Below are positions 6,068 through 44,587 of a stretch of DNA of 64,000 nucleotides, in pieces. The notes below the pieces were generated by a model. That model was not told the origin of the DNA. It saw only the letters and a list, made by a program, of their open reading frames with translations, and searched no databases. Both the position numbers and the translations under genes were made by a program. Positions within the stretch are counted from its first letter, which is position 1, and the number at the start of each line of letters is the position of its first letter. The DNA comes from Beta vulgaris subsp. vulgaris (taxonomy: Eukaryota > Streptophyta > Magnoliopsida > Caryophyllales > Amaranthaceae): the NCBI RefSeq assembly GCF_026745355.1, contig NC_079202.1, positions 42,802,561 to 42,866,560 on the forward strand. The letters run 5' to 3'.

Positions 6068-8456
6068 GTAAGGTAACAAAATAAAGAACCAATTTAATTT
6101 CAGAATACATATAGAAAGAAAAGAAAGCAAACAAAATAAAATACCTGACACCAATGGGATGAAATTAGACGAAGAGACAGTAATTCGTAAAAATTCTCCT
6201 AAATACTTCAAATAAAATAAAGCCCATCTTTCTTTCCTCTTCCTCCCAGTTTTTTTTATCATCGTCATCATCTCCTCTCTAACACCCAATTTTCAACAAA
6301 GATCTCTCCTTTTCACTCATCTTTTCCCTTTTCAAACCCTAACCCACCTTCCACTTTTTTTCACTACATTTTTTGCGCACTTCAAAGTTGTCAACTTTCA
6401 TTTTCTTCGATTTTAATTCTAATGGGATGAACTAAAAGAAAAATTTAGAAGAAAAATAAGAACAGATGATTTTCTAAGTCATACAAACTCTTCTCACCAT
6501 ACATTCATATTTATCCTGTCTGAAGGAATGGAAGGGATATATGTTTTGCATTAAATTTTTTTAGTAAATTGCAAAATATATCTAATAATTAGAGTGATTA
6601 GTTAACAAAACTCATAATCAGCTATAAGAAAATCTCAAGGAACCCTTGACCATATCTCTATATCAAATCAAATCAATAAACACACTAAGAGTCTAAGACC
6701 TCAAATATCTAGACCATATGTATGAGTTTGATGTCTTTGTAATTACCTCAAATTTCATCGCTAGTTTGATATGATATGATTAGAACTCAATAGTAAACAG
6801 TGTATCTTTAGTACTACACATTTCTGTAAAAACTAACACTTCATAGTAGTATAGGGGCACAACAGCTTTTCTGTAGAATGTTGTTCCCCATGAACAATTT
6901 CATCATGTTTTTTAAGCAAGACAGTCCACGTAAAAGAACATAACTAACTTACAAAAGGCTCACTGGTTATGTCTTTTATAGTTACATAACAAGTCAGTGC
7001 TCAAAAGAGCGAAAATAGCAATCTAATCACGGTATTATTAAACTATTGCTGCTTCTTTGATTACTTGGTCGATGGTCCTTCTTGTTTGTGCTCGTTGAAA
7101 TTGCTATGAATATTTCAAATAATTCTAAAGTATTACTTTATCAGATGATGTCTTTTCTCTTTGACAAAAATGATCAACATAAAGCCATATATGAGCATAT
7201 TTATGTCAATTTAGCCGACCACATTTACATTATGATAATATGATACACTTATTGAGTAATAAATAGCAAGTTTGAAAAATATTCGAAACTTAAAAACATA
7301 CCTTGAATTGTTAAAGCGAATTGCAATCACTCAAAAGTTTCTCTCGCAAACTCCAATAACATCAAAACATAACAACAACAAATAAATAACAGAACATTAA
7401 AGTTTAATGACGTAATTGAAAGTTACCTTACTGAGATTAGAGTTTAGGATGTGATATTTAGGGATTGGAGAAAGGATAACTATGAAAACAACATTAGAAC
7501 GTCAAAAACAGCCAAAAATATCATTTAATCTAACAAAAATTGCAAGAAATTTATGAATTACTCGGCGATTATCGAAGAAATGAGAGTTTAATGAATCAAC
7601 AGAAAGCTTCATGTACAATTATCAACAAAACCTATGTTTATACTCCGACGACTACAGAACTTTAAGGGAAAAAAATTGATACTTGGGAGAGAAATTTAAG
7701 AAGAAGAAGAGAGATAAATTAAAATGATAAACTCAATTCTTTTTTTTTCAAGTTTGTAGAGAAGAAAATAAAATTACTTTAAATGTCAGATCTTTATAAT
7801 CACTCAAATTTCAGGAAACCTAACCCACACAAAAAAATGAAGAGAAAGAAAATGAAAAGTAATGAAACCTTTGCATTATCATGTTAACAAAGAACCAACA
7901 AAAGCAACAAAGTATAAAATCATATTAAAATTGCCAACAAAAAGCTAATCTTACCTAGATCCGTGAAATCCATGAGAATAAAACGATTTTCGGGAATAGA
8001 ATGAATTTCGCTACAAAAAAATCAAATGAAAATATTTCTTGATTCTTCAAGATTAATTTCCTTTATAATCTACCAGAATTTTAAAACAAAAAATGTAAAC
8101 GAAGTAATATATTCTGCAACTACAAATAATGCAACTAATTAACTTGCATGTTTAACACCAGTTAGAACTCTAAAATCAGTAATCAAGAAAGAACCCTACA
8201 AAAATTAAGCTTAAATCATCAAGAAATTATAAACCCTGAAAAATACCTTCAATATATACAACTGGGTGCTAAGCTTTTTTCTGAATTTTAAGTAAATCAG
8301 ATTTTGATGTCTTCTTTTGTTGAGCTTCCAAGTCCATCACTTGCATTTCTTCAACATCTACATCCACATCATCACCTTAACCTCGTCCATCTTCCTCTCT
8401 TTTCTCATTAATTTTCTCTAAGATCTAACAATATATATTTAAAAAAGAACTAAATG
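6068..8456. other. AT-rich intergenic stretch, no supported gene
   Basis: About 2.4 kb with no open frame of interest. Several sequences resembling minus-strand splice sites are present (for example near 7300, 7425, 7955 and 8245), so a multi-exon untranslated or very diverged transcript on the minus strand cannot be excluded. No protein similarity was recognised. Confidence 0.4.
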
Positions 8457-11708: not shown

Positions 11709-14472
11709 TCATTCAAAGGTGCGAGACTGAAGGTTCCTCACAATTCTAGGATCGAGTTGGAAGGCCCTAGTTAAAACATCAATGGAGATAGGCGGCTTAG
11801 CGCCAAACACGGCAGCAGCAGTGGTGACAACGCCAGGGTTTTGGCTGCTAAATGCAGAAAGGGCTACACCGGGAGTATTACCAATATTGGTCTCAAAATG
11901 AATGAGTCCTTGAGGAAATACGAAAACATCTCCTTTTTTAAGCACCTTGGCGAATAGCTTGTTTTCGCCGTTTTGGAGGTTGGAGGTTACGAAACCAGCG
12001 TAGAAGGTACCTTCAATAATGGTGATGACCTCGGTTGCACGAGGATGATGGTGGGGAGTATTTACGCCGTATGGTGCGACGTCAATTCTAGCCAATGATA
12101 TACCTAAGGTATTGAGCCCTGGAAGGTTTGCTGCAGTCACTCGTGTAACTGCCGAACCTACCTGGTTGCGTGTATTTCCGGGCTTGTCTAGCCCCTCGAA
12201 AACGAAATCCTCCACTTCGACAGCCATTGGATCCTTACAGAACAATCCATTTACGAATACTGATTCAACAAAGAAAGATATGTATTATCATTCAGTTGAC
12301 AATATGTTATTTCAACTACGTATCATGATAACAAAGAGTATGATAATTACAGATTCTCTAGTACTTATATGGTTCGCTATTGTGATGGTTAGCTATTATT
12401 TCCAATTTCCATTATGCGTCACACCCAGTCACCCACATGGCCACATATATACTCCTTCAGTCCCCAATTTTAAAACTATTCCCATGTATATGTTGCACAT
12501 AAATATAGCTTATAACGTTGTTGTAACTTCTCATGGTGTTTCAATCTCAGCTAAATCGCATCGACCAAAAAATATAAACTTGAGGGGAAATGTTGAGAGG
12601 AATAAAGACAAGCAATTTTTTTTTTTTTTTTTTTGGGAATTCAAAATTTGTATTGACTATCAAAAAACATTTGGTAAGGGTAACAACCAAGCTACAATAT
12701 AATGTAAACTGTTTTTTTTTCCTGAGAAAACTATTATACCAATATACCATTATTAACCCGTTTTGACTTTTTTTTTTTATGATCTTCTATTATTATTCTT
12801 GTACAGCGTAACATTACTAATTAAATTTAGGAAACGTTTTTGTTAAGTAAACTCGTTTGAGGCTTTGACGCTAACCAAGTTTTTAGACAGAAAATTGCAA
12901 GAAAATACAAAATTAATTAAATTAATCCTACAATTGCACAAAAAGAACAATTCAAATGGCCATGTACTATATTATTGCACGGTTTTTTTTTTCTAATTTT
13001 GTATTTTAATCAGATTATCTAATAGGTGCATTATAGATTAGCCTCAAAATTTTGTCATTGAGTCATTAGAGGGGAGAGAGTGAGTTGACTGAGGCTGATT
13101 GCTGGAAAAAGATAGCCAAGGAAAACTTTTGGCTGGAGCTGCTTCGTTATTTCTTAAAAAAGTCAGTTTGTCCTACTATATCTTGTTCTTAACACAACGA
13201 GAAAAGAGTTTGGTAGACGATTTTTTTTTTACAAATTTTATAATTACTGTCACACTATAGAAGAAATAATCATATACAATCATTTGATATGATTAATTAT
13301 TATTTCATTGTTTAACATCTATAAATATACTAGAAGACAGGGATAAAATTCAAGGATCAATAATAGCAAATAAAATTGTGATCTTGTCCATTTATTTTCT
13401 TACATTTTAGATATCTAGATCTTCATTTATAATAGACAAAATATAAATTGATTCCCAATACCCCTTTTTCTTTTCTTATATATTCATGTAAGCAAAGGCG
13501 GATCTCGTAAGGGGCCTGGATGGCCCATGCCCTCCAAAATAAAATAGAGTTCCGATTTTGGACTTTTCCACCAAGTTTTTGTAACAACATAAGTTAATGC
13601 CCGCATAAATAATAAGTGGTGGAGGGAGTGGCTCAATGATAAGTGGATCGTGCTGGTTTGAATCTGTGTGGTGTAAGGAAACTGTGTTCGAATCTTCCTT
13701 CTTGCCTTTTCTTTTCTTAATATGCTCATTACTTTGTTATTTCTTCTTAACCTCTCTTCTTTCAGCTTTTCTTTTTCCTTCTTTAAGTTAATCTTGCTTA
13801 TATCTTTTGGATTCATTAGGTTTATCTTTAGAGGACAAGGAACTTTAGTTTTTTTTATAAAGAAAATCCAACTTTAATCATTATTTAGTTCCAAAATCCA
13901 TTCTTAAGTCCTCACAATTATAAAAACACAATATTTTTGAAACTTCTTCTAGTTCATAATACTTGTTATAATTCTCCCACTTTCTTTCTATTTTTTAAAA
14001 AGCTCCTCACTTTTTTTTATATATAGCAAGTATTATGAAACAGATCAAGTAGTATTGCGATAAATTATTGATGATTCAGTGTAATAGACGTATGGTAGAC
14101 TACTGATTAGTTTATGTGATTTAGTAATTATCTGTTACACTAATAAAGGCCCCCCAAACCAAAATTTTTGGATCCGCCCCTGCATATAAGCTTGCAATCC
14201 GAACTTTCAGAATAGGAATATTGAACCATCCATTTCCGAGTCATACAATTTAGAAAATTTGTAATCAAAAATAAGTTCAATACTGTATAAACTTAAAGCT
14301 TAGCTTTGCGTAATGAAAGTCTAGTAGAATCAGATATAAATATTTTACCTCCATCAGAAGGGTTATTTACCCCTACACAGAAATCTTGCAGCTGAGTTGG
14401 ATCAGTACCATAAGCAACATAAAAAGCCACGGTTAGAAGACCGGCGTAAGCGAGGATGTTACTAGGTGGCAT
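11709..14472 (-). CDS. Germin-like protein, two exons (14349-14472 and 11709-12259)
   Basis: Exon 1 (ATG at 14472) encodes 41 residues: a hydrophobic signal peptide ([20 protein letters not shown]) then [18 protein letters not shown]. It ends at donor GGAG|GTAAAA. The acceptor ATCAG|TATTCG restores the frame (phase 1) as [11 protein letters not shown]. The joined product is 224 residues, the usual family length. Germin box 1 carries His111, His113 and Glu118 (PHHHPRATE) and box 2 His162 (FPQGLIHF): the four Mn ligands of the cupin barrel. Cys32 and Cys49 fit the conserved disulfide. Germin-like proteins are secreted, usually hexameric cell-wall glycoproteins, some with superoxide dismutase or oxalate oxidase activity; which applies here cannot be read off. 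No stop or shift was seen. The 2.1-kb intron is long and holds a hAT element. Confidence 0.92.
13493..14182. mobile_element. Non-autonomous hAT element inside the germin-like intron
   Basis: The right end, reverse-complemented, begins CAGGGGCGGATCCAAAAATT; the left end is CAAAGGCGGATCTCG. Flanks are the 8-bp duplication CATGTAAG (13485-13492) and CATATAAG (14183-14190), differing at one base. 8-bp duplications and such termini point to hAT. 690 bp; the 110-codon minus-strand frame at 13484-13816 has no recognised domain. It lies between the exons, so it must be spliced out with the intron. Confidence 0.85.
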
Positions 14473-18196: not shown

Positions 18197-18470
18197 GATA
18201 TACATTGTTAAGGATTGAGAACATTGTGCTTATCATGGCATGATGAAGGCATAGATCCTTCTATAATGGAAAATCAACTTTGAAACCTTGTAATTGGTCA
18301 TATATTAACCAATCTCGAATGCATTATTTATAGATGATGAAACGGGTTGGAATCAACACATTATCTATTGTCAATGGGTTATTGATCACTAGCGTGGGTT
18401 ACCCCTTCTTTCCCTTCAAAAAGTCACACACATGTGAAGTGAAGAAGCTTTGTGCAGCTTTTAAATAAAA

Positions 18471-18575
18471 GGGATATTCCATTTGGTACTATTGAATTTT
18501 TGGCTTTTTCATTTGGTACCACTGTTATTTTAAAATTCCACATGATACCACTCTAATTTAATATTAATCTTTATC
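18471..18575 (+). repeat. Left terminal inverted repeat of the 8.6-kb MULE
   Basis: It matches the reverse complement of 26940-27043 along about 100 bp with scattered mismatches. The motif TTTGGTACCACT recurs inside it. MULE transposases bind such terminal repeats. Confidence 0.9.
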
Positions 18576-18922
18576 ATACCATTTTTTTTAAGTAAAATGT
18601 TAGTTAACGGTTAAACAAGAATACAATTTTGTTTGTGTTTGCATGTTTCTATTTGCAATTGCAAACATTTAATAAATTAAAATTTTAGGGTGTCGTTTTA
18701 ACCCTTAAAGCTCTATTTTTCAGTCAAAATTTTCATAAAAATAAGGGGGTTGCTAAACGCAGCCTCACTTTACTAATGCAGCCTTTAAAAACCCCAAAAA
18801 ACCCTTATTATCATATTCTTTCTAAAAAACCCTTTCTCTCTCTAAAAATATTCTCTCATCCTCTCTAACTGTTAGATATAAAAAACTTCATTGAAGATCT
18901 ACAAATTTTAATTTTAATTTCA

Positions 18923-21900
18923 ATGGACCATAATTTTGACCCAATTGAGTTTCAATCTGATGTAAGTTGTTAATTTTTTTTCGCAATTATGATTCAAGTT
19001 GTGAACTTTTTTCGCAAATTCGTAATTACACGAAACAATTTATGCGCAAATTCAATCTGATGTAAGTCTATTTCGTGTAATCTACACGAAACAATTTATT
19101 CCGTTTCGTGCAGACTACACGAAACAGATGATTCCGTTTCGTGCAACTTGCACGAAACAATTGAATCTGTTTCGTGTACCTTGCACGAAGTGCTTAATAT
19201 TCCGTTTCGTGCAAGTTGCACGAAATCTGCTATTTTGTTCCGTGAAAAGTTTCCGAGACAATATCATCTGTTTCATATAAACCGCACCAAGCAATGTTTA
19301 ACACATATAAATACAAAACAAACCAATTTACTATTTGTGTTTGAGATTGATTTGGTTGAGACTTAATTTATGACTTTGAAGATGTAAAATTGATGATATT
19401 TTTCAAATTTCAAAAATGATATATAAATAGTTTTTTTGTTTGTCATTTATTGTATAATTTATGATTGATTATGTTTATCAAATTTATGATAACATGTATT
19501 TTGTGGTTTTCATAAATTGTCAGGATGATGTCCATGTAGAATAGGTTGATGAAAATACACCTAATTATAGTGAATTTTTCACCACTACAACTATATTTCC
19601 CACTCGAAAAGCATTACGTGATTGGGTTACTGAAATAGGTAGGCTGCATAATATGGTGATAATCATCGCTCGATCACAATATGGTGAAGGGCAAGGCTTG
19701 GGGAATGCAAAAGCTACCCTCACTTGTGAAAGAAGCGGGAGATACAGACTGCATAAGTCTAGAGAACGTGTAGATGTGGAGAAATTTACCGGTACAAAAA
19801 AAAGATTGTGTCCTTTTCGACTTCAAGCGATTGAGTGTTGTGGTGGTGGTTGGAGTGTCTATGTCATTAATGGAAAGCACAATCATGATCTTCCCGATTT
19901 CAACGAGGGACGTGCACTTATTGGCATGTTAAGTAAAGATGAGCTCAATTTGGTAGAAGAATTAACTAAATCTCATGTACCGCCTAGTCAAATCATGAAA
20001 GTGCTTAGTAGGGTGGATGAAGAGACTTTGACTACAGTGAAACATATTTATAATGCCTGTCAGAAGTTGAAAACCAAGGCAATGTGTGGTAGGTCTGTGA
20101 TGCAACAACTAATGAAGGTGATTGTTGATAATAACTATCTACAATGGCATCGTGAAGAAGTGGGAACAAATGTGGTTAGTGACATAGTTTTTGCTCATCA
20201 TGATGTTGTTGATCTATTGTTTTTGTTTCCTTATGCTTTAGTCATTGATTGTACATATAAGACAAACAGATACAAAATGCCTTTTTTGGAGATAGTTGGT
20301 ATAGTTCCAACTGGAAAAAATTTTGCTGTCGCCTTTGCTTGGTTGAGAAACGAAAAGGAAATAAATTACCAATGGGTCCTGGAATGTGTGAAACAGTTAT
20401 TTGATCCAGAGAAGTTGCCGGGTGTGATTGTAACTGACAGGGAATTGGCTCTTATCAACGCGGTTAGACAAATATTTCCTAATTTGGCTCATCTTTTATG
20501 TACAAGACATATTGGGAAAAATGTGGACAACTATGTGGGCAAGTTGACTAAAAATGAAGATATTGTCAAAGCATTTCTTCTAGATGGTATAAGTTAGTGG
20601 ATGCACCAAGTGTTGCATCGTATGAACAACGATTAAAAGAAATGAATGAAGCCTTTAAGTCTATGCCAGCTGTGTTAGATTATGTGAAATCTACTTGGTT
20701 GGATCCATATAGTGATAGATTTGTCAATGCTTTTACAATGAACATCCTACATTTGGGCACAAGAACGACCAACAGGTAAATAAAAATTTCAATTAATTAA
20801 ATTATAATTCAAATAAGTAAATGATATATTATATAGTGGTAATGTTTTTTATATGTGTTATCGTTATTATTATTAATTATATTACAGGGTGGAAAGTGCT
20901 CATGCAGCACTAAAATCATGGTTAAAGACTTCGACATGAAGTTTGGATACAATATGGCCAATTATTCATTCGTTTTTGGAAGCCCAGAAACGTGAAATAA
21001 AAGCCTCTTTCCAAAGGTCCCAAAACAGAGATCCTCATGCGACAGTGTTACGTCTATTTATGTCATTGAAAGGTCGAGTATCACACAACGCTATACGCTT
21101 GCTTGATAATGAATATAAACGTGCAAATGAAGTTGGTGTTGATGGTTTCGTTTGTGGATGTTATTTAAGACTTACACATGGACTTCCGTGTGCTCATGAG
21201 ATGATGGAGATGGAAGAAAGAAATGCAAGTATTCAACTTACGGATATCCACCCTTTTTGGAGGACTCTTAAACTTAGAAGTGCTGCTCCACATTAAAATT
21301 TAGATGAAGAATCTCATTTTCAGATCCGGCATGATATTGATAAGGAATTGCAAGTGTACTTCAAGGATATTCTAGATCTACCTGAACAAAGTAAAAAAAT
21401 AATAGCAGCTCAATTGGAAAAAATAGTGCACCCCAAATTCACAAGATTGAACGAGCCACATACTAACCCAACCTAGAGGTCTCCTCCAAAAAAACTCACA
21501 AGAAGAGATCCATCTGATTGGGAATACACAGAACAAACATGCTCCAAGAATTCTAAAACTGAACGTGGTGGATGTGCTTCTACTTCTACATCAGCTAAAG
21601 GTCGGGTCGTGGACGTGGACGTTCTTCGTTGACACTCTCAAATGCTTCACAAATAATTCCTCCCAATATCTTTCCATTTCATGATCAACTCCCCTCCTAC
21701 ATATTACCTTATATTAGTAGTATACACAATGTTGGAGCTGATGGTAATTGTGGTTATAGGGCCGTTTCTCAATGGATTTATGAGGATGAGGAACGATGGC
21801 CAACTGTTCGGGAAGAGTTAGCTATGGAGATTAAGACTAGGCTAAACATTTACAGTGATATTCTAGGAGGTCACGATAATGTTAGATCAACTTTGATCTC

Positions 21901-22362
21901 CCTTCAACACTATGTCGGATCCGCTACTAAAGATTACTGGATGTCATTACTTGACATGGGTTTTGTGATCTCCACCAGATATAATGTGGTAGTTGTTTGT
22001 TGGTCTCTTGATCAACCAATTACTTTTTTGCTAATAATTGCTCGTGAGGGGAACCACGCACCTGATCGAGTCATCACATTAGGATTTTTGCAGCGGATGG
22101 AGCATTACGTTGTGGTAAGTTTAACTTGTTAAAATGTGTATATTACAATAATTTACTAGTTTTTTTACATCTTACTTTTTATTAGGTTGAAATGAAAGAA
22201 GGTTTTCCTATGCCGCCGATTTACCCATATTGGCGTCATCATCATGATCCTAGTGTTGCAGGTTGGTCAATACCTTATCATTCAAGATTTGAAAGATGGA
22301 AAGTCATTGCGGGTGTGCGAGATCGACAAGATAATGTAGACCCTTTTGAGCTTGATCCTTGA
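18923..22362 (+). pseudogene. MULE transposase (FAR1 finger, DDE, SWIM) fused to OTU cysteine protease domain, broken
   Basis: Exons read from splice sites: 18923-18961, 19524-20775, 20888-22114, 22186-22362. In order: FAR1/WRKY-GCM1-type finger (FPTRKALRDWV, then LTCERSGRYR, CPFRLQA, NGKHNHDL); MULE transposase with Asp in VIDCTYKTNRYKMPF, Asp in VIVTDRELALINAV, CTRHIG, and Glu in RVESAHAALKSWL; SWIM finger CGCYLRLTHGLPCAH; then an OTU fold with VGADGNCGYRAVSQWI (Asp and catalytic Cys) and MEHYVVVEM (His), ending PFELDP. The transposase cuts and inserts the element; OTU proteins are usually deubiquitinases, so the fused domain may act on ubiquitin, which is inference. Lesions: TAG near 19542, shift near 20585, TGA near 20936, TAA near 21294, TAG near 21475, shift near 21600. 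Domain residues themselves look preserved. Confidence 0.9.
19028..19232. repeat. Array of palindromic GTTTCGTG...CACGAAAC units in the transposase intron
   Basis: Five or so units alternate GTTTCGTG and CACGAAAC about every 20 bases (for example TTTCGTGCAAGTTGCACGAAA near 19205-19230), separated by AATTTATTCC-like spacers. Adjacent arms can pair in several ways. The array lies entirely in intron 1 of the MULE transposase, close to the left terminus. Confidence 0.85.
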
Positions 22363-22667
22363 TATAATGTTTGGTAACATCACTTTTTATATTTGGAGGT
22401 TGTAATTTACTATTTGTTAACACATTTGAATTGAACTTTGGTGTTGGAATCACTTTTTGTCAAACATAAGTTTAAGCTTTTAAGTTTTCATAATGTGAAA
22501 ACACATCATAGATAATATAAGGATTGGTTACTTGCTAATATCGAACAAATACTAAAACCAATAATTTTTTAATCTACTATATAATAAAAATACCAATACT
22601 ACAAAACGTTATAACATAAATTCTCCTGATAACAAAAGGTAGACAATCTCATGCATTTTCCCGATAA
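22363..22667. other. Spacer between convergent genes of the MULE
   Basis: About 300 bp of AT-rich DNA separate the stop codons of the transposase-OTU gene (plus) and the PMD gene (minus). It would hold both 3' untranslated regions and polyadenylation signals. Nothing else is seen. Confidence 0.6.
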
Positions 22668-24637
22668 TCATCGTTGTGACGAATGTAGTTTTTCAAACTC
22701 CAACAGAATGTCAATAGCCTGGTCAATATGGTGAAATTGGTCCTCCAAACTCAATTTTGATCGTACTTCAGGATATACTGGACGTAGATAATGAGCAATC
22801 AAGTGGAGTCGCTGTAATGTAAAGAAGTATTAAAATATTATCATGAAACGAGAAAATAGAAAATATAGTTTCATAATACTTAGTAGATTTTACCGCTTCG
22901 GCAGTAAGTTGGTGTTGTCTTGGCATATATCCATTAGGGGCATGTTCAGGATTTTGCAACTTTGGATGTGAATATTGTAAAAACCATTGCATGTAGTCGG
23001 AAGAGCAATCCCATGGATTGGAAGCTTCCTTACCTAGACGGTGCATACTTAAATAATGGGATGAAGGATCATCCCAAAAGCACATCATAGATTCCGGATA
23101 TTCGATGGCGTAAAAATGGGCCGGTTTGTTCTCTTTGTTTGGTGTAATTGGAGACCTAGGACGAGTCTGTACATATCCAAATTGTCGTAGAACACGGTCC
23201 GGCATATACGGTTCAATTATAGAAGCGTACCGAATGCATCCATGATACAATGATAATGGTAAATTGTGTACTACATTGATACCATAAGGCACCCATATAA
23301 CCTGTATTTAACATTATATTATTAAGATAATATAAACAAAACTCCAACTAAAAAATCTAATCAAACAAAAATATAAATATATACCTCTTGAGCTGTCATG
23401 TCATCTAACCTCCATCGGTGTTGTTGTAGTGTAGAAAGTAATTTCGGTGTCCGAGTCTAAGCATCCCATTTCATAGCGCGAGGGTGCTCACCGGGCAAAT
23501 AGTTAGAATTCGTCATGGGTCGAAACATTGGAAAGTGCTCATATATCCAAACCTTAAAATAAAAGAACACAAAAATTAAATTGAGAATTTAAGTCGAGCA
23601 ATTTTTAAATGTAAGAAACAAATTACCTCAAGAAGAGTAGATGATCCTGCCAGTTGCTTAGTCTCTGCTCTTGTAGCTTTGCCAAGTTCCCGATAAAGAT
23701 ACGCAAGAGCTGCCGAAGCCCACGAGTACGACTTAACACTAACAAGGTCGCGTACTAGAGGAAATAATAGAGTGGACGTTCGATCTACAGTTTTGTCAAT
23801 AAATATAGTGGACCCAAGTAATGTAACTAAAAAGCCTCTAGCTATATCATCCGCATCATACTTATTTTTTGGATCCATCAAAGTCTCTCCAATTTTTGAA
23901 ACTTAATTCCACCATGTGCATGTTCAAACTTTATCTCTTTTGTATCTATATTAAGCAATTTACCAACAAAAGAAAATAGTGAATTTCATGATTCCTTCTG
24001 TTGCATTGGGTGGTTAATAGCAACACCGTTAATAGGAAGACCCAAAATCAAAGATACATCATGTAATGTAATTGTCATCTCTCCAAAGGGCAAATGAAAA
24101 CTATTAGTTTCAGGGTGCCATCTCTCAACAAAAGCTGATATTAATGACCCAACCCAGTACTTTTTACTAATAGATACCATGCATCACGAGGCTCAAATCG
24201 AAAGAGATCAATCGCATGTGTTCTTGACTGAATGACAAAAACAGCTCAATCTGAGAAAGTGAACACAACTCAATTAAAATACTACCACATTGATATTGTG
24301 TTTACGAATAAATTACTACATAAGTACTCACATTTTTCTCCCAAATGTAACAAGCTACATGACCTCGATAACCACGTAGCAAATCTGTAGAAAGTGGCCC
24401 TCCTGGTGCTGGTGCAGTCAACATCCAATCAGAAGTGCGAGGACGTTTTACCCATTTACGTTTGCCATTGTCTTCCTCGGGTTGCTCTGGTTCGATAACA
24501 TGTTCCTCGTTGGAACCGCCAACACCCGAATCAGGATCCTGGGATGATCTCCTAGCCGAACGAGTAGCCCTAGCAGAAACAATCACTGTCCTACCGTCTA
24601 AACGAGTCTTCTTTTCAATTTTGTCTGTCATCTGCAT
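22668..24637 (-). pseudogene. Plant mobile domain (MAIN-like/PP7-long-form-like) gene carried by the MULE, broken
   Basis: Exons on the minus strand, from GT-AG sites: 24332-24637, 23627-24250, 23385-23552, 22894-23301, 22668-22811. Exon 1 starts MQMTDKIEKKTRLDGRTVIV and is basic and acidic by turns. Exon 2 holds the diagnostic PMD core, SAFVERWHPETNSFHLPFGE then MTITLHDVSLILGLPINGVA, then DADDIARGFLVTLLGSTIFI and SVKSYSWASAALAYLYRELG. Later exons contain VWIYEHFPMFRP, DDMTAQEV, WVPYGINVVHNLPLSLYHGC and PEHAPNGYMPRQHQLTAEA. PMD proteins such as MAIN and MAIL1 act in silencing and gene expression, and transposon-borne versions are known. Lesions: frame shifts near 24200 and 23885, TGA after QQKES near 23985, stop in WDA*T near 23460. 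Transcribed toward the transposase gene. Confidence 0.87.
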
Positions 24638-26939
24638 ACATAGGTTAATATATACTAAGTAAATTATTTATCATCAACACAATCCCACAGTCATGACATT
24701 TGAGTTTTTGTTTGTTTGTTTGTTATAAGGAACTTGTTGTTGGAGTTTCAATTCAGATTTTTTTTTTTTTACTATATATGATTATGAAGTTCAATTCATA
24801 AAAGAATTAGTATTTCCTCAAACCTTACAGAAGACAACTAAAACATTGTAAGTGAAGAGAAACTCAAAACTGACACCACATATAAAAGAGCATAAACAGA
24901 TTTAGTATTTCAGTTTAGAAGTTTTCTCTTGCTTGGCAAAATTTGAACCAATCTCACTCTTGCATTCAACCTTTGTCTACTGTTTGTAGTCCTCCTGTTC
25001 AATCTTCTCATGACAGTAAATATAAAGCTTTTTCACCTACCTAACTCATGTTACCCATGTTTGGACTATTGAAAATGTGAAATGGGTAGACAGACTACCT
25101 AATGCTTATTGGAAAGGAAATCTAGAAACATGCAACTGAATATACCTTAATAAATGCAATTCAAGTAGAAAATGGAATACTGAGATCTATGAACAGGTAA
25201 CACATGAATACATTATCTTTTTTCACTACTGGAAACTATTATTGGATCTTATTAATTTGATTTTTTTGGTTTGTTTAGCAATGGGCACTTGAAGTTAAAC
25301 ATGGTTTTAGAGAGTCGAATATAGCAGATCAATGTAACTACAGGTAAGTTTCAATTTCTTCATCTCAGTTTTTGATTAGAGGGATTTACAGTAACTTCTT
25401 ATAAAAAAATCAAAGACCATAAATCCACATCGGATTCATATAAATAGGTTTGCTTATGACTAGGCATAGAACTACAGGTAAGTTTCAATTGCTGAATTAG
25501 GTGATGTAATCTTATTAAAGAAGAAAATTTGAGTATAAGATAAGTACTCATAACACATTGTAGTAAATAGTAATGCTTTGCTTATGACTAGGCATAGAAC
25601 TGAGAACACGACCCCTTTAGTAAACTTCTTCAAGCTAAACCAGCTCACGTATTGAAAATGGAAAAGATTGTTACTTCCATTACTGATCAGCAAGCAAGCT
25701 TTCAGTTCCTACACGCATCTGCTACTATATGGACAGTTGAAGAGCTGAACTTATATATAATGAAAGTACCAAGTAGCCTATAACAACAGAGATGGCCTAA
25801 GAAATATAACAACCATTTCATTGAGTTTATATGAAACGGGAGGAACCACTTCATCCCAGTTACATGAAACAGTACCAATTATTTTGTTCAATATACGTGG
25901 AATAGTAACTTCTATTTCATTCAATTTATATGAAACGGGAGGAACCACTTCATCCCAGCTACATGAAACAGTACCAACTATGTTGTTCAATATACGTGGA
26001 ATAGTAACTGCTATTTCATTCAATTTATGTGAAATTCTAACAAACCAATTAACAAACGAAGCAATTTCGAAAAAACAACAATGCACATATTTTGGGACCA
26101 ACAAACCAATTTCAAACAAACGGGTTGAACAAATTTCGCAATTGCTTATCACCAATTCCGCAACAACGGGTTGAACAAACGAAAACTAAGAACATTTTTG
26201 AAGGAAACGAACGAACGATTTTGAAGGAAACGAACAAAAATCCAGAAAACTAAGAACAATTTTGAAGGAAACGAACGAAAATCCAGAAAATCGCAATGAA
26301 TTTCGTAGTTTACTTCAAAATTGTAACTTCCATTTCCTTCAAAATTGCCATAGAAACTGTAGAGGGAGAACGTAGAGAGAAATTGAGAAAACTAACCTGA
26401 AATTACGAAATTTTGATGGACGATTTTCCAATAATTTCTTCACTTCAATTTCGTGTAAAGGATCTAAATTTATCAATTTTCCAACATTTCATAAAGATTA
26501 AAGTGATTGCAATTCGGGTATAATGGTGGACGGTTTGTGCGATTTTGAACAAGAATAGAGGAAATGAAACCCGAGAGAATGGAGGTGAGAGAGGAAAGCT
26601 ATTGGGAGAAATGGAAAAATAATGAATGAATGAGGGATGGAAGTCGAAAAGGGAGAGGGAGATGAGAGAGGAAAGGAATTGGGAGAAATGGGTTATGAAT
26701 GCATGAGGGTATTTTTTGGTATTTTTTAGGGTTGTATAGGGTAAATGAGAGTTGTATTTAGTCATCATGAAAAATAATCATAATATTCTATGTCTTTTTA
26801 TTGTCAAATATGACCTCAACTTTGACCTTAACGACTAAAATGATTACTAAAACCTTAACGCAAATTAAAACATGTACATCGAAGTAAAACTCTAGCCTAT
26901 TCTAACTTAAATTGACACTTTACTTAGTTGAATGTTATA
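24638..26939. other. Noncoding right arm of the MULE
   Basis: No gene is supported between the PMD start and the right terminal repeat. It should include the PMD promoter. Two repeat clusters occur: a tandem duplication at 25815-26035 and, at about 26165-26290, recurring GAAGGAAACGAACGAA and AATCCAGAAAA motifs. Short frames here are not believable as proteins. Confidence 0.5.
25815..26035. repeat. Tandem duplication of about 110 bp in the MULE right arm
   Basis: Two successive copies contain TATATGAAACGGGAGGAACC, CATCCCAG(T/C)TACATGAAACA and TTCAATATACGTGGAATAG. A third partial copy begins at the right. The open frames on both strands across it simply repeat themselves. Confidence 0.85.
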
Positions 26940-27043
26940 ATAGAGAATAAAATCAAATTATAGTGGTACCATGTGGAATATCTGAAAAATAGTGGTACCA
27001 AATGGAAAAGTCAGAAGTATAATGGTACCAAATGGAATATCCC
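26940..27043 (-). repeat. Right terminal inverted repeat of the 8.6-kb MULE
   Basis: Reverse complement of the left terminus, ending ATGGAATATCCC at 27032-27043, with three TGGTACCA-containing motifs. The 9-bp duplication TTAATAAAA follows at once. Confidence 0.9.
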
Positions 27044-27061
27044 TTAATAAAATAACATGTT

Positions 27062-27535
27062 TTTTAATATTCTCGTCGGACCACTTCAATTAGAAGCACT
27101 TGTGCTTCAGTTAGGCTTACTTGAGTTTCAGTTGGTCTTTATTTTTTTTCAGGTAGTCTTCATTTTTTTTCAGGTAGTCTTCCTTTTTTTTCAGTTGGTT
27201 CTTGTGTTTCAGTTAGACTTACTTGGGTTTCAGTTGGTCTTTATTTTTTTTTCAGGTAGTCTTCCTTTTTTTTTCAGGTAGTCTTCATTTTTTTTCAGTT
27301 AGTCTTCTTTTTTTTCAGTTGGTTCTTGTGCTTCAGTTAGACTTACTTGGGTTTCACTTGGTCTTTATTTTTTTCAGGTAGTCTTCATTTTTTTCAGGTA
27401 GTCTTCATTTTTTTCAGTTAGTCTTCTTTTTTTTCAGTTGGTTCTTGTGCTTCAGTTAGACTTACTTGGGTTTCAGTTGGTCTTTATTTTTTTTCAGGTA
27501 GTCTTCATTTTTTTCATGTAGACTTACCATATCAA
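27062..27535. repeat. Minisatellite, about four units of 120 bp
   Basis: The unit contains CAGTTGGTTCTTGTG, TTCAGTTAGACTTACTTGGG, CAGTTGGTCTTTATTTTT and several copies of CAGGTAGTCTTC(A/C) followed by T-runs. Unit starts near 27072, 27191, 27315 and 27434, so the period is 119-124 bp, with a shorter 20-bp period inside. It begins just outside the MULE duplication. The Phe/Val/Leu-rich frame across it is not a gene. Confidence 0.9.
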
Positions 27536-29070: not shown

Positions 29071-30723
29071 TTAACCAACATTCTGAAATACTTCTTTGTA
29101 CACTATGTTCGTGGTAACATTTGATGTTCCACGTTCTTTATCAACTATTAAAATTTTCAAACCCTTCTTGCTAGTAACTCTTGATACGGCCACATAAAAT
29201 TGTCTGTAGCTGAAAACAGACGGAGGAAGATATAGGCCAACATGCGAAAGTGATTGTCCTTGACTTTTATTGATTGTCATTAAGCACACAACCAAAGGGA
29301 ATTGTCTCCGTTGGAACTTGATGGGAAATTTGTTGAGTCTGACGAAGTCAGCGTCATTCATGGAATGAAGACCTTATTGCCCAAATTACTACCAGATACC
29401 ACAATAGCCTCTATAATGCGATCGCCTAAGTGCTTAACGACCAATCTTGTGCCATTACATAGCCCAGAACTTTGATCAATATTCCTTAAGAGCATCACTG
29501 GTGCTCCAACCTTCAGTCGTATACTATGGTTTGGTAATCCTCCGCATTTAATTGTATTTAGGAACTCTGTTGAATACATCTCATGAATTCCAAAATTTCC
29601 TTCCTCTACTGAAATTGCATCTGAACTCAAGTAAGTTCTTTCTTCACCTGGCAATTGAGATAACACGTGATCGTTAACCGTCTGAGCAATTTCATTGGTT
29701 GGAGCAAGAATAGCTCTTTCTTGAAAATAACTTGGTTCCCAAATGTGATCCGCTATGTCAGGATATGTGCTTTCTACTATTTTCGCAAAAGGGTCATGTC
29801 CCCCATCTACAAACATTTCATGGCGTATTTCAATATCGGCCTCACCATCATTTGGCCCTCCAACTTAGCCATCTCCAACATTGAGTATCCATTATGAAAA
29901 TTCTCTAATTTCATCAACATTTTAGTTACTTGAACCTGTTGTAAGGCGCATGTTCTTTGTCAGCCTAAGTACTCGGCAAAAGTCCCATAAGTAAGAACTA
30001 TTTATTGCTGAGAAGACAATGTCTTGTCTGCTTCCTTTAGGCACCACGGGTAATATTTTTCTTAAATCACCAACAAAACTACAACCTTGCCACCAAATGT
30101 GATATCTTGATTTGCAGGATTCACAAACTGCATAACATCCTTTAAACTCCTATCTAGAGCTTCAAAGCAGTATTTATGCATCATGGGAGCTTCATCCCAT
30201 ATGATTAACTTTGTCTTCATAAGGAGTCTGGTTAATTCCGAGCCTGGCTTAATGCCAACACATGTTGAGTTCTCAGCAACATTTAACGGGAGTCCAAACC
30301 TAGAATGAGTAGTTCTTCCTCGCGCGCAGAAGCAATAAAGAAGCTATCCGCTTGATGCGACTGGCAAAATGGTATCTCCTTTACGCCTTAATGAGGCACA
30401 CAACAATCTCCAAAGATACGTCTTACCTGTTCCTCCGTATCCATATACAAAGAACACCCCTCCTTTTCCTCGTGATACAGCTGACATAATTTCATTGTAA
30501 ATTCCACGTTGCTCAGTTGTTATCCTTGAAACAGTCGCTGGAACTCCTCTTCTAACTTCCCTCGGTCATAGGAAAGCTCGTCCATTATCATTTTGTTTTG
30601 CCCGTCTTCTATGATAAGATCATTAGGATATGGCATTTCGCTGAATTTACGTAATGTGCTGCCATTGCTTTGTAGCTTAGCTTCAATGTCTGCTAGCGCA
30701 AAGTTTTGCAGTTTTTTTTCCAC
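29071..30723 (-). pseudogene. Helitron Pif1-like DNA helicase, C-terminal two thirds, broken
   Basis: From 30723 downward: KKLQNFALADIEAKLQSNG, then the Walker A motif in VFFVYGYGGTGKTYLWRLLC, GRTTHSRFGLPLNV, Walker B in KLIIWDEAPMMHKYCFEALD, GGKVVVLxGDLRKILPVVPK, LRLTKNMRL, RAILAPTNEIAQTVN, VGAPVMLLRNIDQSSGLCNG, then [20 protein letters not shown] and [17 protein letters not shown]. These are SF1 helicase motifs I to VI of the RepHel protein that unwinds DNA during rolling-circle transposition. A stop inside PVASSG*LL near 30345, shifts near 30080, 29960-29830 and 29360, and the missing Rep domain disable it. Ends at TAA near 29071. Confidence 0.9.
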
Positions 30724-39781: not shown

Positions 39782-39973
39782 TGTTAGAGATATTATTGTG
39801 TGCATATCTTGTGTATATCTTTCCTATTTATCTTGTGTATATCGTTTCCTTATGTATAACCTTTCCTATTATTTAGGATCTCTAAATTAGTTAGCTTTAC
39901 TAATTTGTATCATATATATTGTAAAGCAGATTAATGAGAAACACAAGATTAAACCCTATTCTCATCTTTCACA
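39782..39973 (+). repeat. Left LTR of the copia element
   Basis: TGTTAGAG...TTTCACA, containing a short internal duplication of CTTGTGTATATC(T/G)TT. It should hold the promoter and polyadenylation signals of the element. Confidence 0.96.
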
Positions 39974-39985
39974 TGGTATCGGAGC
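39974..39985 (+). other. Primer binding site (initiator Met tRNA)
   Basis: TGGTATCGGAGC directly follows the left LTR. The usual plant copia sequence is TGGTATCAGAGC, so one position differs. Confidence 0.9.
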
Positions 39986-40034
39986 ATTAGGTTTTTTTTT
40001 TCTATATTCTGCCGTCAAGCAGTGGCCGCCCTCC

Positions 40035-43000
40035 ATGGCCGGCGATGTTGTCTCTCCTCCTCCTCCGCCCCCACCCACGTATCTCCCCAGTTCTCCCTTC
40101 TATCTTTCTGCTTGTGATAAACCAGGAGATTATATCACTCCTACCCGTCTCCGTCACGATAACTATGATGATTGGGATGCCGACATACAAATGGCGCTTG
40201 AGGCACGACGAAAGTTTGGTTTTTTGGACGGTTCCATCACCGAGGCAGTTCCTCCATACACCGCCTCTGATTGGAGTCAAGTCAATGCGATGCTTGTTTC
40301 ATGGCTCACTAATACCATTGATCCTGAGGTAAAAGCCACCCTTTCTAAATTTCGTGATGCATCTCGTCTTTGGGAACATTTAAAGACTCGTTTCGCGCTT
40401 GTTAATGGTCCCCGTATTCATCAATTACGGACGGCCATTGCCAAGTGTGAGCAAACTCAATCTATGTTTGTTTCTCAGTATTATGGTCAATTAAATAGTT
40501 ATTGGGAAGAATTATTTCGCCATGAGCCATTACTTGATTGTCAATGTTGTTCTAAGTGTCTTGTGGGTTCTCTTCATGCTAAACGACGGGAGCAACGTCA
40601 ATTACATGAATTTTTAATGGGTCTCTATTCACCATATTACTCTCACTTGTGCACCACTCTTCTTTCCACTGAGCCTTTACCCACTCTCGATCATGCTTAT
40701 CATCTGGTTGTGCAAGAAGAGCGTGTTTGGCTCTCTAGTGTTCTGTCGCAGCCCCGCCGGCTGATGCTCTCCGCTGTGCGGTCCAAGTGCCGAAAGCTCG
40801 TGGTAAGGGAGATCGTCCGGTTTGTACTCACTGCCACAATGTGGGTCATGAGGTTACTAAATGTTTTTCTCTTAATGCATGCTTTCACTGCAAAAAGCAT
40901 GGTCATGATGCTTCTTCTTGTTATGAATTGGTTGGTTATCCGGAGGGTTGGACGCCTAAACCGCCTGGGTCTACTCGCCCAGCTTCTGCCGATCGCGGCC
41001 GCGCGCCTGCCAAGGCTCATGCTGCCGCCGTCTCCTCGTCTGCTGTCCCTACCGCCACCTCGGCCTCGGTGGCTGCTGTCTCTGCGGGCAGCATGTTTAC
41101 CGCAGAGCAGTGGCATGCTCTTGCGGCTATGATTGGTAATACTACGGTCTCAGATGACCGGTTGACTGGTGAGTGTTTTTTTAATTTCTGGATTATTGAT
41201 ACTGAGGCAACCCATCATGTCACGGGTGAGAAAAATTGGTTATTTGATGTTCAAAATATTGTTCCTTGCCCCGTGGGTCTTCCTAATGGTACTACTGTCA
41301 TTGCTACGCAACAAGGCTCTGTTCGTTTGTCGGATTTGCTTACTCTTACTCATGTTCTTTATGTTCCTAACTTTAGTTGCAATTTACTTTCGATTTCACA
41401 GCTTACTCATGCTTTGTCATGTACTGTACAATTTACATCTTCTTTGTGTGCTATTCAGGACCCCTTGAAGAAGCTGATTGGGATGGGACGTAAGCGGGAT
41501 GGACTGTACTATTTTTGTGGAGGTCGCATGATTACTAATATCACCGTTCTTGAAGAGTCCTCTGACTTGGATCTTTGGCATAGGCGCATGGGGCACCCTT
41601 CCGAACGTGTGGTGAAGTTGCTTCCTCCTTTGTGTGGTTATAAGGGTAGTTTGAATAAGGCATGTGACATTTGTTTTCGTGCTAAACATTCTAGATCTCC
41701 ATTTCCTTTGAGTGATAATCATGCTAGTCGTATCTTTGAGAAAATTCATTGTGATTTATGGGGTGCTTATAGACATGAATCCTCTTGTGGAGCACGTTAT
41801 TTTTTGACTATTGTTGATGATTTTTCCCGTGCTGTTTGGATATATCTTTTAATGGATAAAACTAAAGTGTTTCGTATGTTCATGTCTTTTGTTGCCTTGG
41901 TTACTCGCCAATTTTCCCAAATCATCAAAATTGTTCAAAGTGATAATGGTACTGAATTCAATTGTCTTCATGATTATTTCAATGCTAATGGTATCATTTT
42001 TCAAACCTCTTATGTCAAAACACCACAACAAAATGGGCGGGTAGAACGTAAGCACAAACATATCTTAAATGTGGGCCGTGCCCTTCGTTTTCAAGCCCAC
42101 TTACCTATATATTTTTGGGGGGAAAGTGTCCTAGCTGCTGCACATCTCATTAATCATACTCCTTCTCCCCTTCTTGACAATAAATCTCCCTATCAAATTC
42201 TTTATGACACTATTCCTTCATATGCTGCTATTCGTACTTTTGGGTGTTTATGTTTTGCTCACAATCACAACACTCATGGTGATAAATTTGCTTCTAGAAG
42301 TCGAAAATGTGTTTTTGTGGGGTATCCTTTTGGGAAGAAAGGATGGCGTTTATATGATCTTGAGAAACGAGAATTCTTTGTTTCCCGTGACGTCAAATTT
42401 TTTGAGGACATTTTCCCTTTCTCCCAACCCCATGACATTCATGTTGATCTTCCCATCCACTTAAACTCTACCATGGATGACGTCCATGACGATTTTTCTG
42501 CCATCCATTCGCCTCCTCTCACAAATGAGCCCAGCCCACTTCTCACTACTCCCACTTCTCAAACACGGCCCCTCTCCGTTTCCTCTTCGGCCCAAACTTC
42601 TCTCCCAAACCCGCCTACTTCCACGCGTCCACTCTCTTCCTCTTCGGCCCAGCTCACCTCTCCTTCTCGGGCCTCACCTGCTCCTACACACGCAGCCATC
42701 CCGCCTTCTCCCTCTTCGGCCTCTATCTCTTCCTCTCCAGCCCACAATTCTTCCTCACCTACATCTAGCCCCCTTTCCTCACCTACATCTAGCCCGTCTT
42801 CTTTTTCCGCTGCTTCTCCTACTTCCTCTTCTTCTCCTCCATCATTGGGTAAGGGTCATAGGCTCAAATTTGACTCGGTTTTATTACGTAATTTTGTTAC
42901 TAACATAATTATGGCTACTAGTCCATCTTCATCGTCTCCGCCTTCTCAGTCTTCCTCAGGTACTCCTTATCCATTAGCTCACTTTATAAATTGTGCAAAT

Positions 43001-44587
43001 TTTTCTGTGAAATATCGAAAGTTTCTTGCTTCTATTGTCTCTCATACTGACCCCAGGAATTATAAAGAAGCTATGTCTCATGATGGTTGGAAAGCTTCTA
43101 TGCAAGATGAAATTCAAGCTTTGGAGGATAATGGTACTTGGTCTTTGGTTCCGCTTCCATCTGGGAAACGGGCCTTGGGTAGTCAGTGGGTTTATCGCAC
43201 CAAGTACAAGTCCAATAGAGATGTGGAGCGTCTCAAATCTCGTCTGGTTGTCTTGGGCAATCATCAGGAAGCTGGCATCGATTATACTGAGACTTTTGCC
43301 CCTGTTGCCAAAATGACTACTGTTCGTACTTTTCTTGCCATTGCAGCTTCCAAGCATTGGGAACTTCATCAGATGGATGTTCACAATGCCTTCCTTCATG
43401 GTGATCTTGATGAGGAGGTGTACATGAAACCTCCGCCTGGCTTTGCTCCTGCTGACTCTTCTCTTGTCTGTCGTCTGCATAAGTCCTTGTATGGTCTTAA
43501 GCAGGCCCCTCGTTGTTGGTTCGCCAAATTGGTATATGCTGTTAAAGGGTATGGCTTCTCTCAATCTTATTCTAATTATTCTCTTTTCACATATGCTCGG
43601 GGTTCGATTCAGCTCAATGTTCTTATCTATGTGGATGATCTGATCCTTGCTTGTAATGATTCTGCTGCTCTTACTACTTTCAAAGCCTACTTGAGTGACT
43701 GTTTCAAGATGAAAGATTTGGGCCCGTTAAAGTATTTCCTTGTCATTGAGGTAGCTCGCAGTGCTTCTGGTCTTTTTTTATGCCAACAGAAATACACTCT
43801 TGATATTATTGTTGAGGCAGGTCTGTTGGGTGCCAAACCCAGTGCTTCTCCCATTGAACAGCATCATCGGCTTGGTCATGCCACCGGGCCACCCATTGCA
43901 GATGCTGCTTCCTATCGTCGGCTGGTAGGCCGTCTCATCTATCTCTCTGTTACTCGTCCTGATCTGGCCTATTGTGTGCATATCTTGTCCCAGTTTATGC
44001 AGGCTCCCAAGCTTGAGCACTGGGAAGCTGCTTTACGGGTTGTTCGTTACTTGAAGGGTACTCCGGGATTGGGTATTCTTCTTCGCGCCGACAGTGATTT
44101 ATCTTTACAGGGCTGGTGTGATTCTGATTGGGCTGCTTGCCCTCTGACTCGTCGCTCATTGTCTGGTTGGATTGTTTTCTTGGGCTCTTCCCCCATTTCA
44201 TGGAAAACCAAGAAGCAACATACTGTCTCCCGCTCATCTGCTGAAGCCGAGTATCGCTCCATGGCTGCTATTACTTGTGAGTTGAAATGGCTAAAGGGTC
44301 TTCTACTTAGTTTGGGTGTCCATCATCCCCAAGCTATTCCTTTGTTTTGCGATAGCTAGTCTGCTCTGCATCTTGCTCAGAATCCCGTCTTCCATGAGCG
44401 TACGAAGCATATTGAGGTGGATTGCCATTTTCTTCGTGATGCTATCATTGATGGTCTTATCTCCCCCTCCTATGTACCGACTACCACTCAGCTGGCAGAC
44501 ATCTTCACAAAGGCTCTAGGCAAAGCTCAGTTTGATCTTTTGCTTTCCAAGTTGGGCATTCTCGACCACACCCATGCTCCAACTTGA
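40035..44587 (+). pseudogene. Copia Gag-Pol polyprotein with one frameshift and one nonsense codon
   Basis: Gag starts at 40035 (MAGDVVSPPPPPPPTY) and stays open until the frame must change near 40730-40760. The pol frame from about 40760 continues to 44587. Pol shows two zinc knuckles (CTHCHNVGHEVTKC, CFHCKKHGHDASSC), a protease site at 41198 reading DTEA instead of D(T/S)GA, the pre-integrase block LWHRRMGHPS...CDICF, integrase with Asp in IHCDLWG, Asp in QSDNGTEF and Glu in NGRVERK, reverse transcriptase with QMDVHNAFLHGDL, LYGLKQAPRCW and YVDD at 43628-43639, and RNase H with SAEAEYRS. A TAG at 44357 replaces the Gln of the CD-QSA motif; sense reading resumes with [19 protein letters not shown] to the end. 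Few lesions, consistent with the close LTRs. A Ser/Pro-rich linker separates integrase and reverse transcriptase. Confidence 0.96.

What the first reader, a model, noticed from the sequence alone, without database searches (positions are those of the whole stretch)
18471..27043. A MULE that carries a transposase-OTU gene and a convergent plant mobile domain gene within one pair of inverted repeats
Seen: roughly 100-bp inverted repeats, a 9-bp target duplication with one mismatch, and two multi-exon genes converging between them. Known: FAR1-type MULE transposases, OTU or ULP1 proteases in some plant MULEs, and PMD proteins acting in plant gene silencing and transposon control, with PMDs found in transposons. 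Inference: this element paired a possible deubiquitinase fused to its transposase with a homologue of a host silencing factor. Such a two-gene cargo would be a counter-defence module: OTU acting on ubiquitinated chromatin or proteins, and PMD competing with host MAIN/MAIL1. The small number of lesions suggests intact relatives exist.
Basis: partly seen in the sequence, partly recalled or inferred. Interest (0 to 1): 0.86.

Follow-up and report, generated by a model that had tools for sequence, protein, structure and literature searches.

The report
Beet transposon with two helper genes
A family of jumping genes in beet carries, besides its own mobility enzyme fused to a protease-like domain, a second gene whose predicted shape matches a known protein that protects transposons from being silenced, and DNA repeat arrays that this protein might bind.

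The parts
18462..18470 (.). left copy of the 9-bp target duplication of the OUTER small MULE (TAAATAAAA)
   Evidence: right copy 27044-27052, one mismatch
   Evidence: at least 40 genomic matches to the first 130 bp; in copies L003-L008 it runs directly into the sequence of 26770-27043
26770..27043 (+). right part of the outer small MULE, with its right TIR
27044..27052 (.). right copy of the outer 9-bp target duplication (TTAATAAAA)
18737..18744 (.). left copy of the 8-bp target duplication of the INNER element (AAAAATAA)
   Evidence: 8 of 8 identical; 8-bp overlap in 7 of 7 empty sites
26770..26777 (.). right copy of the inner 8-bp target duplication (AAAAATAA)
18745..26769 (+). inner two-gene MULE (8,025 bp), nested in the outer one
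   Evidence: same ends in L012, L013, L014, L019
18745..18842 (+). inner left TIR (imperfect, ~100 bp; aligned part 18753-18842)
   Evidence: alignment score 31, best of 300 shuffles 25
26663..26769 (-). inner right TIR (aligned part 26663-26761)
18923..18961 (+). transposase-OTU gene, first coding exon (predicted)
   Evidence: ATG and splice-like junctions; no transcript evidence
19524..20775 (+). transposase-OTU gene, exon 2 (AFT/FAR1-like N part, MULE DDE domain); in-frame TAG near its start and a frame break near 20580-20588
20888..22114 (+). transposase-OTU gene, exon 3: SWIM-like CxC...CxH (motif recalled; no Pfam match) and OTU domain from about 21650 (DGNC motif); stops and a frame break before the OTU part
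22186..22362 (+). transposase-OTU gene, last exon (C-terminal part)
22671..24631 (-). PMD gene, convergent to the transposase gene; coding exons about 24631-24331, 24245-23627 (with frame breaks), 23558-23382, 23295-22894, 22811-22671
   Evidence: P0121 aligns exon by exon at 89-98%, first exon 73-82%
19071..19225 (.). left 33-bp palindromic repeat array (TTTCGTGCA..TGCACGAAAC), in predicted intron 1; candidate PMD binding sites
25815..26034 (.). right array, period 33/99 (TTTCATYCA..TATATGAAAC), upstream of the PMD start codon

Best explanation
SHOWN: in the Beta vulgaris genome a low-copy MULE family of about 8 kb has TIR - transposase fused to OTU (rightward) - PMD gene (leftward) - TIR, with 8-bp target duplications; the window's copy is dead and inserted in an unrelated high-copy small MULE. 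INFERRED: the transposase acts on the inner TIRs. The PMD protein is the element's VANC-like factor: a sequence-specific DNA-binding protein that recognises the 33-bp palindromic arrays in the element's own noncoding flanks and counteracts host silencing of copies that bear them, short derivatives included. The OTU domain is a deubiquitinase travelling on the transposase; it most likely removes ubiquitin from the transposase itself or from proteins at the bound element ends (weakest step).
Confidence: 0.6

Rival explanations
1. The PMD is a dominant-negative or decoy homologue of the host MAIN/MAIL1-PP7L silencing complex: it acts by protein competition, without binding element DNA.
For: PMD is the domain of MAIN and MAIL1, which silence transposons (PMC5418596 passages); Ikeda et al. 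find it tempting to speculate about anti-silencing use by MULEs; the PMD is under constraint.
Against: The fold match to a DNA-bound anti-silencing protein and the noncoding arrays fit a DNA-binding mode better. Closeness to host MAIN/MAIL1 was not measured, because the genome search for all PMD loci did not complete.
Confidence: 0.2
2. The 33-bp arrays are subterminal transposase-binding sites (or neutral minisatellites) and the PMD helps transposition, not anti-silencing.
For: Arrays lie in both flanks, and the left motif is kept in L032-L034, two of them short derivatives, as expected of any cis-required site or simply of sequence near an end; the shuffle control is not decisive for the window or for the right side.
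Against: The left array lies in predicted intron 1, about 330 bp from the end, and varies in unit number and motif between copies, which is what is described for VANC targets.
Confidence: 0.25
3. The PMD gene is a passenger or separate nested insertion beside the transposase-OTU gene.
For: Three of 11 other OTU loci have no PMD in the fetched DNA; six PMD places lack the OTU exon (C6:28.32, C2:29.91, C6:37.89 and three fragments).
Against: 8 of 11 are colinear across the OTU-PMD junction; in L010, L012, L013 and L014 one alignment runs from transposase to PMD; C6:28.32 and C2:29.91 still hold transposase sequence next to the PMD; no inverted-repeat pair of 25 bp or more brackets the PMD gene alone in the window; divergences of both halves correlate.
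Confidence: 0.03
4. One reading: the element is bounded by the repeats at 18471 and 27043 with a 9-bp duplication.
For: Those repeats and the duplication exist.
Against: Empty copies of the outer element with exactly the 8-bp insertion-site overlap, 7 of 7; in none of the 11 other OTU loci fetched does an alignment of 60 bp or more reach the outer repeats.
Confidence: 0.01

Closest known systems
MULEs with an antisense PMD gene (groups 42 and 45-50 of Dupeyron et al. 2019, PMC6446971; section 6 with Table 1 read, other passages seen)
   Same: MULE transposase plus a PMD gene, in most groups sometimes or often in the opposite orientation, inside one element; so transposase + antisense PMD is published as recurrent.
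   Different: Those groups are listed with 9-10 bp duplications where given and no OTU. Here the duplication is 8 bp, the N-terminal part is AFT/FAR1-like, and the transposase is fused to OTU. The table lists an ovarian tumour gene only for MuDR-6_HM of a cnidarian.
Jittery/FAR1-type plant MULEs (group 36 of the same table)
   Same: 8-bp duplication, FAR1-like N-terminus, SWIM-like motif.
   Different: No PMD or OTU is listed for that group. Placement was not tested with a tree against Jittery.
VANDAL21 (Hiun) with VANC21 (PMC5735166, PMC10398659, passages seen)
   Same: MULE with a further gene whose product has the same fold as predicted for the PMD here; tandem-repeat motif arrays in noncoding DNA.
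   Different: PMD here is not DUF1985 by Pfam's cut-off; motif and transposase differ; anti-silencing is shown for VANC21 and only inferred here.
Host MAIN/MAIL1 (PMC5418596, PMC8616336, passages seen)
   Same: PMD domain family.
   Different: Cellular genes that act for silencing; this PMD is in a transposon.
OTU deubiquitinases (OTUD5/DUBA, OTUD1, OTUD3)
   Same: Predicted fold; Asp, Cys and His positions conserved.
   Different: Fused to a transposase; activity unknown; the window domain scores below Pfam's OTU cut-off (14.9 against 23.3).

Membership tests
Mutator-like elements (MULE) | MULE DDE transposase domain PF10551 | tested here: met
   84.6 bits against cut-off 27.6
Mutator-like elements (MULE) | TIRs and 8-11 bp target duplication | tested here: met
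   inner TIR about 100 bp; 8-bp perfect duplications at 5 loci
Jittery/FAR1-type MULE group | FAR1-type N-terminal domain | tested here: inconclusive
   AFT 22.3 bits against 21.6; FAR1 15.7 against 28.1; two of the closest full-length relatives (P0005, P0006) carry a precomputed PF03101
Jittery/FAR1-type MULE group | 8-bp target duplication | tested here: met
   group value from PMC6446971 Table 1
Jittery/FAR1-type MULE group | transposase clusters with Jittery in a tree | not tested
   no reference transposases of the named groups were fetched
OTU cysteine protease | OTU fold | tested here: met
OTU cysteine protease | catalytic Asp, Cys, His | tested here: met
   D48, C51, H169 at least 90% conserved in 41 sequences; Cys in 73 of 75 rows that span the motif; a strict [NE]H[FYW][VI] pattern is found in 29 of 45 rows over 140 residues
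OTU cysteine protease | Pfam OTU gathering score | tested here: not met
   14.9 bits against 23.3
OTU cysteine protease | ubiquitin cleavage | not testable with these tools
   needs an assay
Plant mobile domain (PF10536) | Pfam PMD gathering score | tested here: met
   37.6 and 61.1 bits for two window exons against 34.9; 223.9 for P0121
VANC (DUF1985) anti-silencing proteins | DUF1985 by Pfam cut-off | tested here: not met
   P0121 no match; 18 of 56 PMD proteins match, best E 1.1e-4, the six seen singly all below cut-off; so not filed as VANC
VANC (DUF1985) anti-silencing proteins | VANC21 fold | tested here: met
VANC (DUF1985) anti-silencing proteins | tandem-repeat motif arrays in noncoding parts of the element | tested here: met
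   with the shuffle caveat; that the PMD binds them is not tested
VANC (DUF1985) anti-silencing proteins | sequence-specific binding and loss of DNA methylation | not testable with these tools
   needs binding and methylation data

The most novel reading that the evidence does not exclude
Plant mobile domain proteins and VANC proteins are one superfamily of sequence-specific DNA-binding proteins at the centre of the transposon silencing conflict: MULEs use members (VANC, element PMDs) as anti-silencers that bind co-evolving tandem arrays in their own noncoding DNA, and MAIN/MAIL1 are the host's members turned to silencing. This beet family is a second such system in an OTU-fused, FAR1-like lineage, with 33-bp palindromic arrays as its targets.
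Probability: 0.45. Interest if true: 0.87.

Novelty: new variant of a known kind. Interest (0 to 1): 0.66.

Why it matters
In the passages read, the function of the PMD itself is called undetermined, although MAIN/MAIL1 are needed for silencing and many transposons carry PMD genes. A predicted common fold with a DNA-bound anti-silencing protein, plus candidate binding arrays in the same element, turns that into a direct test: does a transposon PMD bind its own 33-bp repeats and lift silencing? It also adds to the MULE cargo listed by Dupeyron et al. a transposase-OTU fusion that recurs in many plants (77 of 120 listed homologues carry the domain; the query itself contained it, so this share is biased upward).

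Tried and rejected
Outer repeats as element ends: rejected. PMD as separate insertion: rejected for lack of its own ends and by colinearity. Profile search of PMD against PDB sequences: 10 matches to E 10, none of them VANC21. Rfam: no match in the window at gathering scores. A text search for VANC together with plant mobile domain found 0 papers; one for MULE, FAR1, OTU, plant, transposon, cysteine protease with at least 5 of 6 terms found 0; these cover only the held open-licence library. Contig-length matches between transposase and PMD hits of other species (spinach, Rhododendron vialii) were dropped as too weak, since a chromosome can hold many copies.

Not answered: genome-wide search with the transposase exon, all PMD loci (PF10536), DUF1985 loci (PF09331), the array pattern, and the right outer TIR (asked once); the genome search failed each time.

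Filters: alignments under 60 bases were not shown, and also short self-matches of the two arrays (under 200 bases); one search lists only pairs with the window, C6:22.59 or C5:20.38; one search tested the window against 6 of 11 other copies and shows wrong-frame controls against 2 of those. The OTU domain count covers the 120 listed of 173 homologues, from a candidate list cut at 7,993. Alignment A1 used 40 of the 77 OTU-bearing homologues plus the window; A2 used 56 of the 120 listed PMD proteins; one search looked at 10 of those singly. Fold tables show at most 50 rows (50 of 161; 50 entries).
Full report
WHERE IT IS. The window lies at C1:42802561-42866560 of a 569-Mb, 20-contig genome. So the host is beet (inference).

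THE OBSERVATION. The outer inverted repeats, the 9-bp duplication with one mismatch and the two converging genes are all present. But the outer repeats are not the ends of the two-gene element. The left outer repeat has at least 40 matches at 96% identity or more (40 of 335 candidates scored). Of the eight loci fetched with it, seven are other places (L002-L008). In all seven the sequence up to 18744 continues into that of 26770 onward with an overlap of exactly 8 bases; in L003-L008 the whole small element is about 541-543 bp, while L002 has extra DNA inside its left part. The two-gene element is therefore an insertion into one copy of this small MULE, with target duplication AAAAATAA.

THE REAL ELEMENT. 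It spans 18745-26769. Its ends (GGGGGTTGCTAAACGC... and ...TATTTAG-N4-CATG) recur in L012, L013, L014 and L019, which are flanked by GGCTAAAA, TTAAAGTC, AAAAAATA and TTTTCAAA, each 8 of 8 identical on both sides. The TIRs are about 100 bp and imperfect (score 31, best of 300 shuffles 25). Of 12 genomic matches to the OTU exon, one is the window. Of the other 11, eight have the PMD gene at the colinear place: L010, L012, L013, L014, L016 and L019 (the last with a large deletion in the transposase and only the end of the OTU exon), L015 (with a 3.8-kb insertion further on, inside the PMD gene), and C6:29.85 after about 19 kb of inserted DNA. The other three lack it in the DNA fetched: C2:3.97 (10.6 kb downstream read), L017 and L018 (10 kb each; diverged copies, 81% and 73%). 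Of 16 PMD-exon matches, one is the window, nine rows are these eight loci, and six are other places: C6:28.32 and C2:29.91 still hold transposase sequence but not the OTU exon; C6:37.89 has PMD and what looks like the right end; three are fragments. The left end (206 bp) has at least 41 matches from 210 candidates, coding copies included; of three further places fetched, L033 and L034 are short derivatives of about 0.8 kb, and no right end was found for L032.

STATE OF THE COPIES. The window copy is dead: four in-frame stops and at least two frame breaks in the transposase-OTU gene, two stops and at least two frame breaks in the PMD gene. Each of the 12 copies scored has at least one lesion in some part (indel counts depend on the alignment). 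The PMD on C12 is annotated as a 593-residue protein (P0121), so an open PMD frame is annotated; no copy with both genes open was seen.

SELECTION. Single-difference codons were tested against an expectation that uses the observed transition bias. PMD: ratio 0.39, 0.35, 0.39, 0.69, 0.76, 0.71 against C12, C5:28.97, C3:36.60, C5:20.38, C5:35.75, C6:22.59 (P 0.007, 6e-5, 2e-4, 0.054, 0.13, 0.028). Transposase: 0.61, 0.44, 0.44, 0.74, 0.69, 0.62 (P 0.12, 0.003, 0.002, 0.11, 0.17, 0.002). OTU: 0.98, 0.63, 0.58, 0.96, 0.63, 0.67, none significant (P 0.09-0.59; 202-224 codons). Wrong frames gave 0.92-2.62 (2 of 6 partners shown). So the PMD was maintained about as well as the transposase; for the OTU part these data cannot tell. 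The pairs share the window and are not independent. Distances of the two genes correlate across 8 copies (r 0.97); both trees join the window with C12 and C5:28.97 with C3:36.60, but they place C5:20.38 differently.

THE ARRAYS. VANC21 binds a 9-bp motif in noncoding parts of VANDAL21; VANC targets often form tandem repeats that change fast (PMC5735166, PMC10398659; passages). Here a 33-bp array lies at 19071-19225 and a 33/99-bp array at 25815-26034. Both are built on a palindrome TTTCRT-N-AYGAAA, CG-containing on the left and mostly CA/TG on the right. Units in first 800 bp / middle / last 1500 bp: window 4/0/2, L012 5/1/4, L013 6/0/4, L014 1/0/2, L019 5/0/4; none in the 55,975 bases around the window element (pattern written after seeing the arrays). 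The left motif occurs 7, 9 and 5 times in L032, L033 and L034. L014 has a changed motif. Against this: in a Markov-shuffle control the commonest left 8-mer exceeds the best of 100 shuffles in five copies but only equals it in the window, and the right side exceeds it in none of six. The layout is the one expected if the PMD is a VANC-like binder; transposase binding or neutral minisatellite growth would also fit part of it.

COMPARISON WITH WHAT IS KNOWN. Dupeyron et al. 2019 (PMC6446971; section 6 with Table 1 read) list PMDs, often antisense, in MULE groups 42 and 45-50, 'PMD and/or DUF' for VANDAL, no PMD for the FAR1-bearing groups 35 and 36, and an ovarian tumour gene only for a cnidarian element. 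Ikeda et al. [quoted passage not shown] So MULE plus antisense PMD and the counter-silencing idea are published. The transposase-OTU + PMD combination, its 8-bp-duplicating family in beet, the arrays and the PMD-VANC fold link were not found in the searches made (open-licence papers only; of the papers listed, passages of seven were seen).

VERDICT. The most valuable lead is the predicted PMD-VANC relationship with candidate targets in the same element.

Noticed in passing
window 18471-18744 + 26770-27043: A high-copy small MULE of about 542 bp (at least 40 matches, 96% or more over the first 130 bp) with 9-bp duplication here; its autonomous partner is unknown.
   Followed up: partly
P0179 and nine other PMD proteins (A2): PMD proteins match Pfam DUF7745 (P0179 26.6 bits, cut-off 26.0), suggesting that PMD, DUF1985 and DUF7745 belong to one superfamily.
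   Followed up: no
L032-L034: Places that keep the left end and left 33-bp array of the inner element without its genes; L033 and L034 are short derivatives of about 0.8 kb.
   Followed up: partly
window 29358-29864 (-): Pif1 helicase fragment (PF21530, 1.4e-24), probably a Helitron remnant.
   Followed up: no
window 39891-44359 (+): Copia-type retrotransposon polyprotein with an open frame of 1,206 codons (40739-44359; RVT_2 5e-72).
   Followed up: no
window 11709-12284 (-): Cupin (germin-like) gene with an open frame.
   Followed up: no
window about 27100-27300: Short imperfect direct repeats around TTTTTTCAG(T/G)TRGTCTT just outside the outer element.
   Followed up: no
G000:C6:29842798-29870843: A copy of the family interrupted by about 19 kb of inserted DNA between OTU and PMD and by further insertions inside the PMD gene.
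   Followed up: partly
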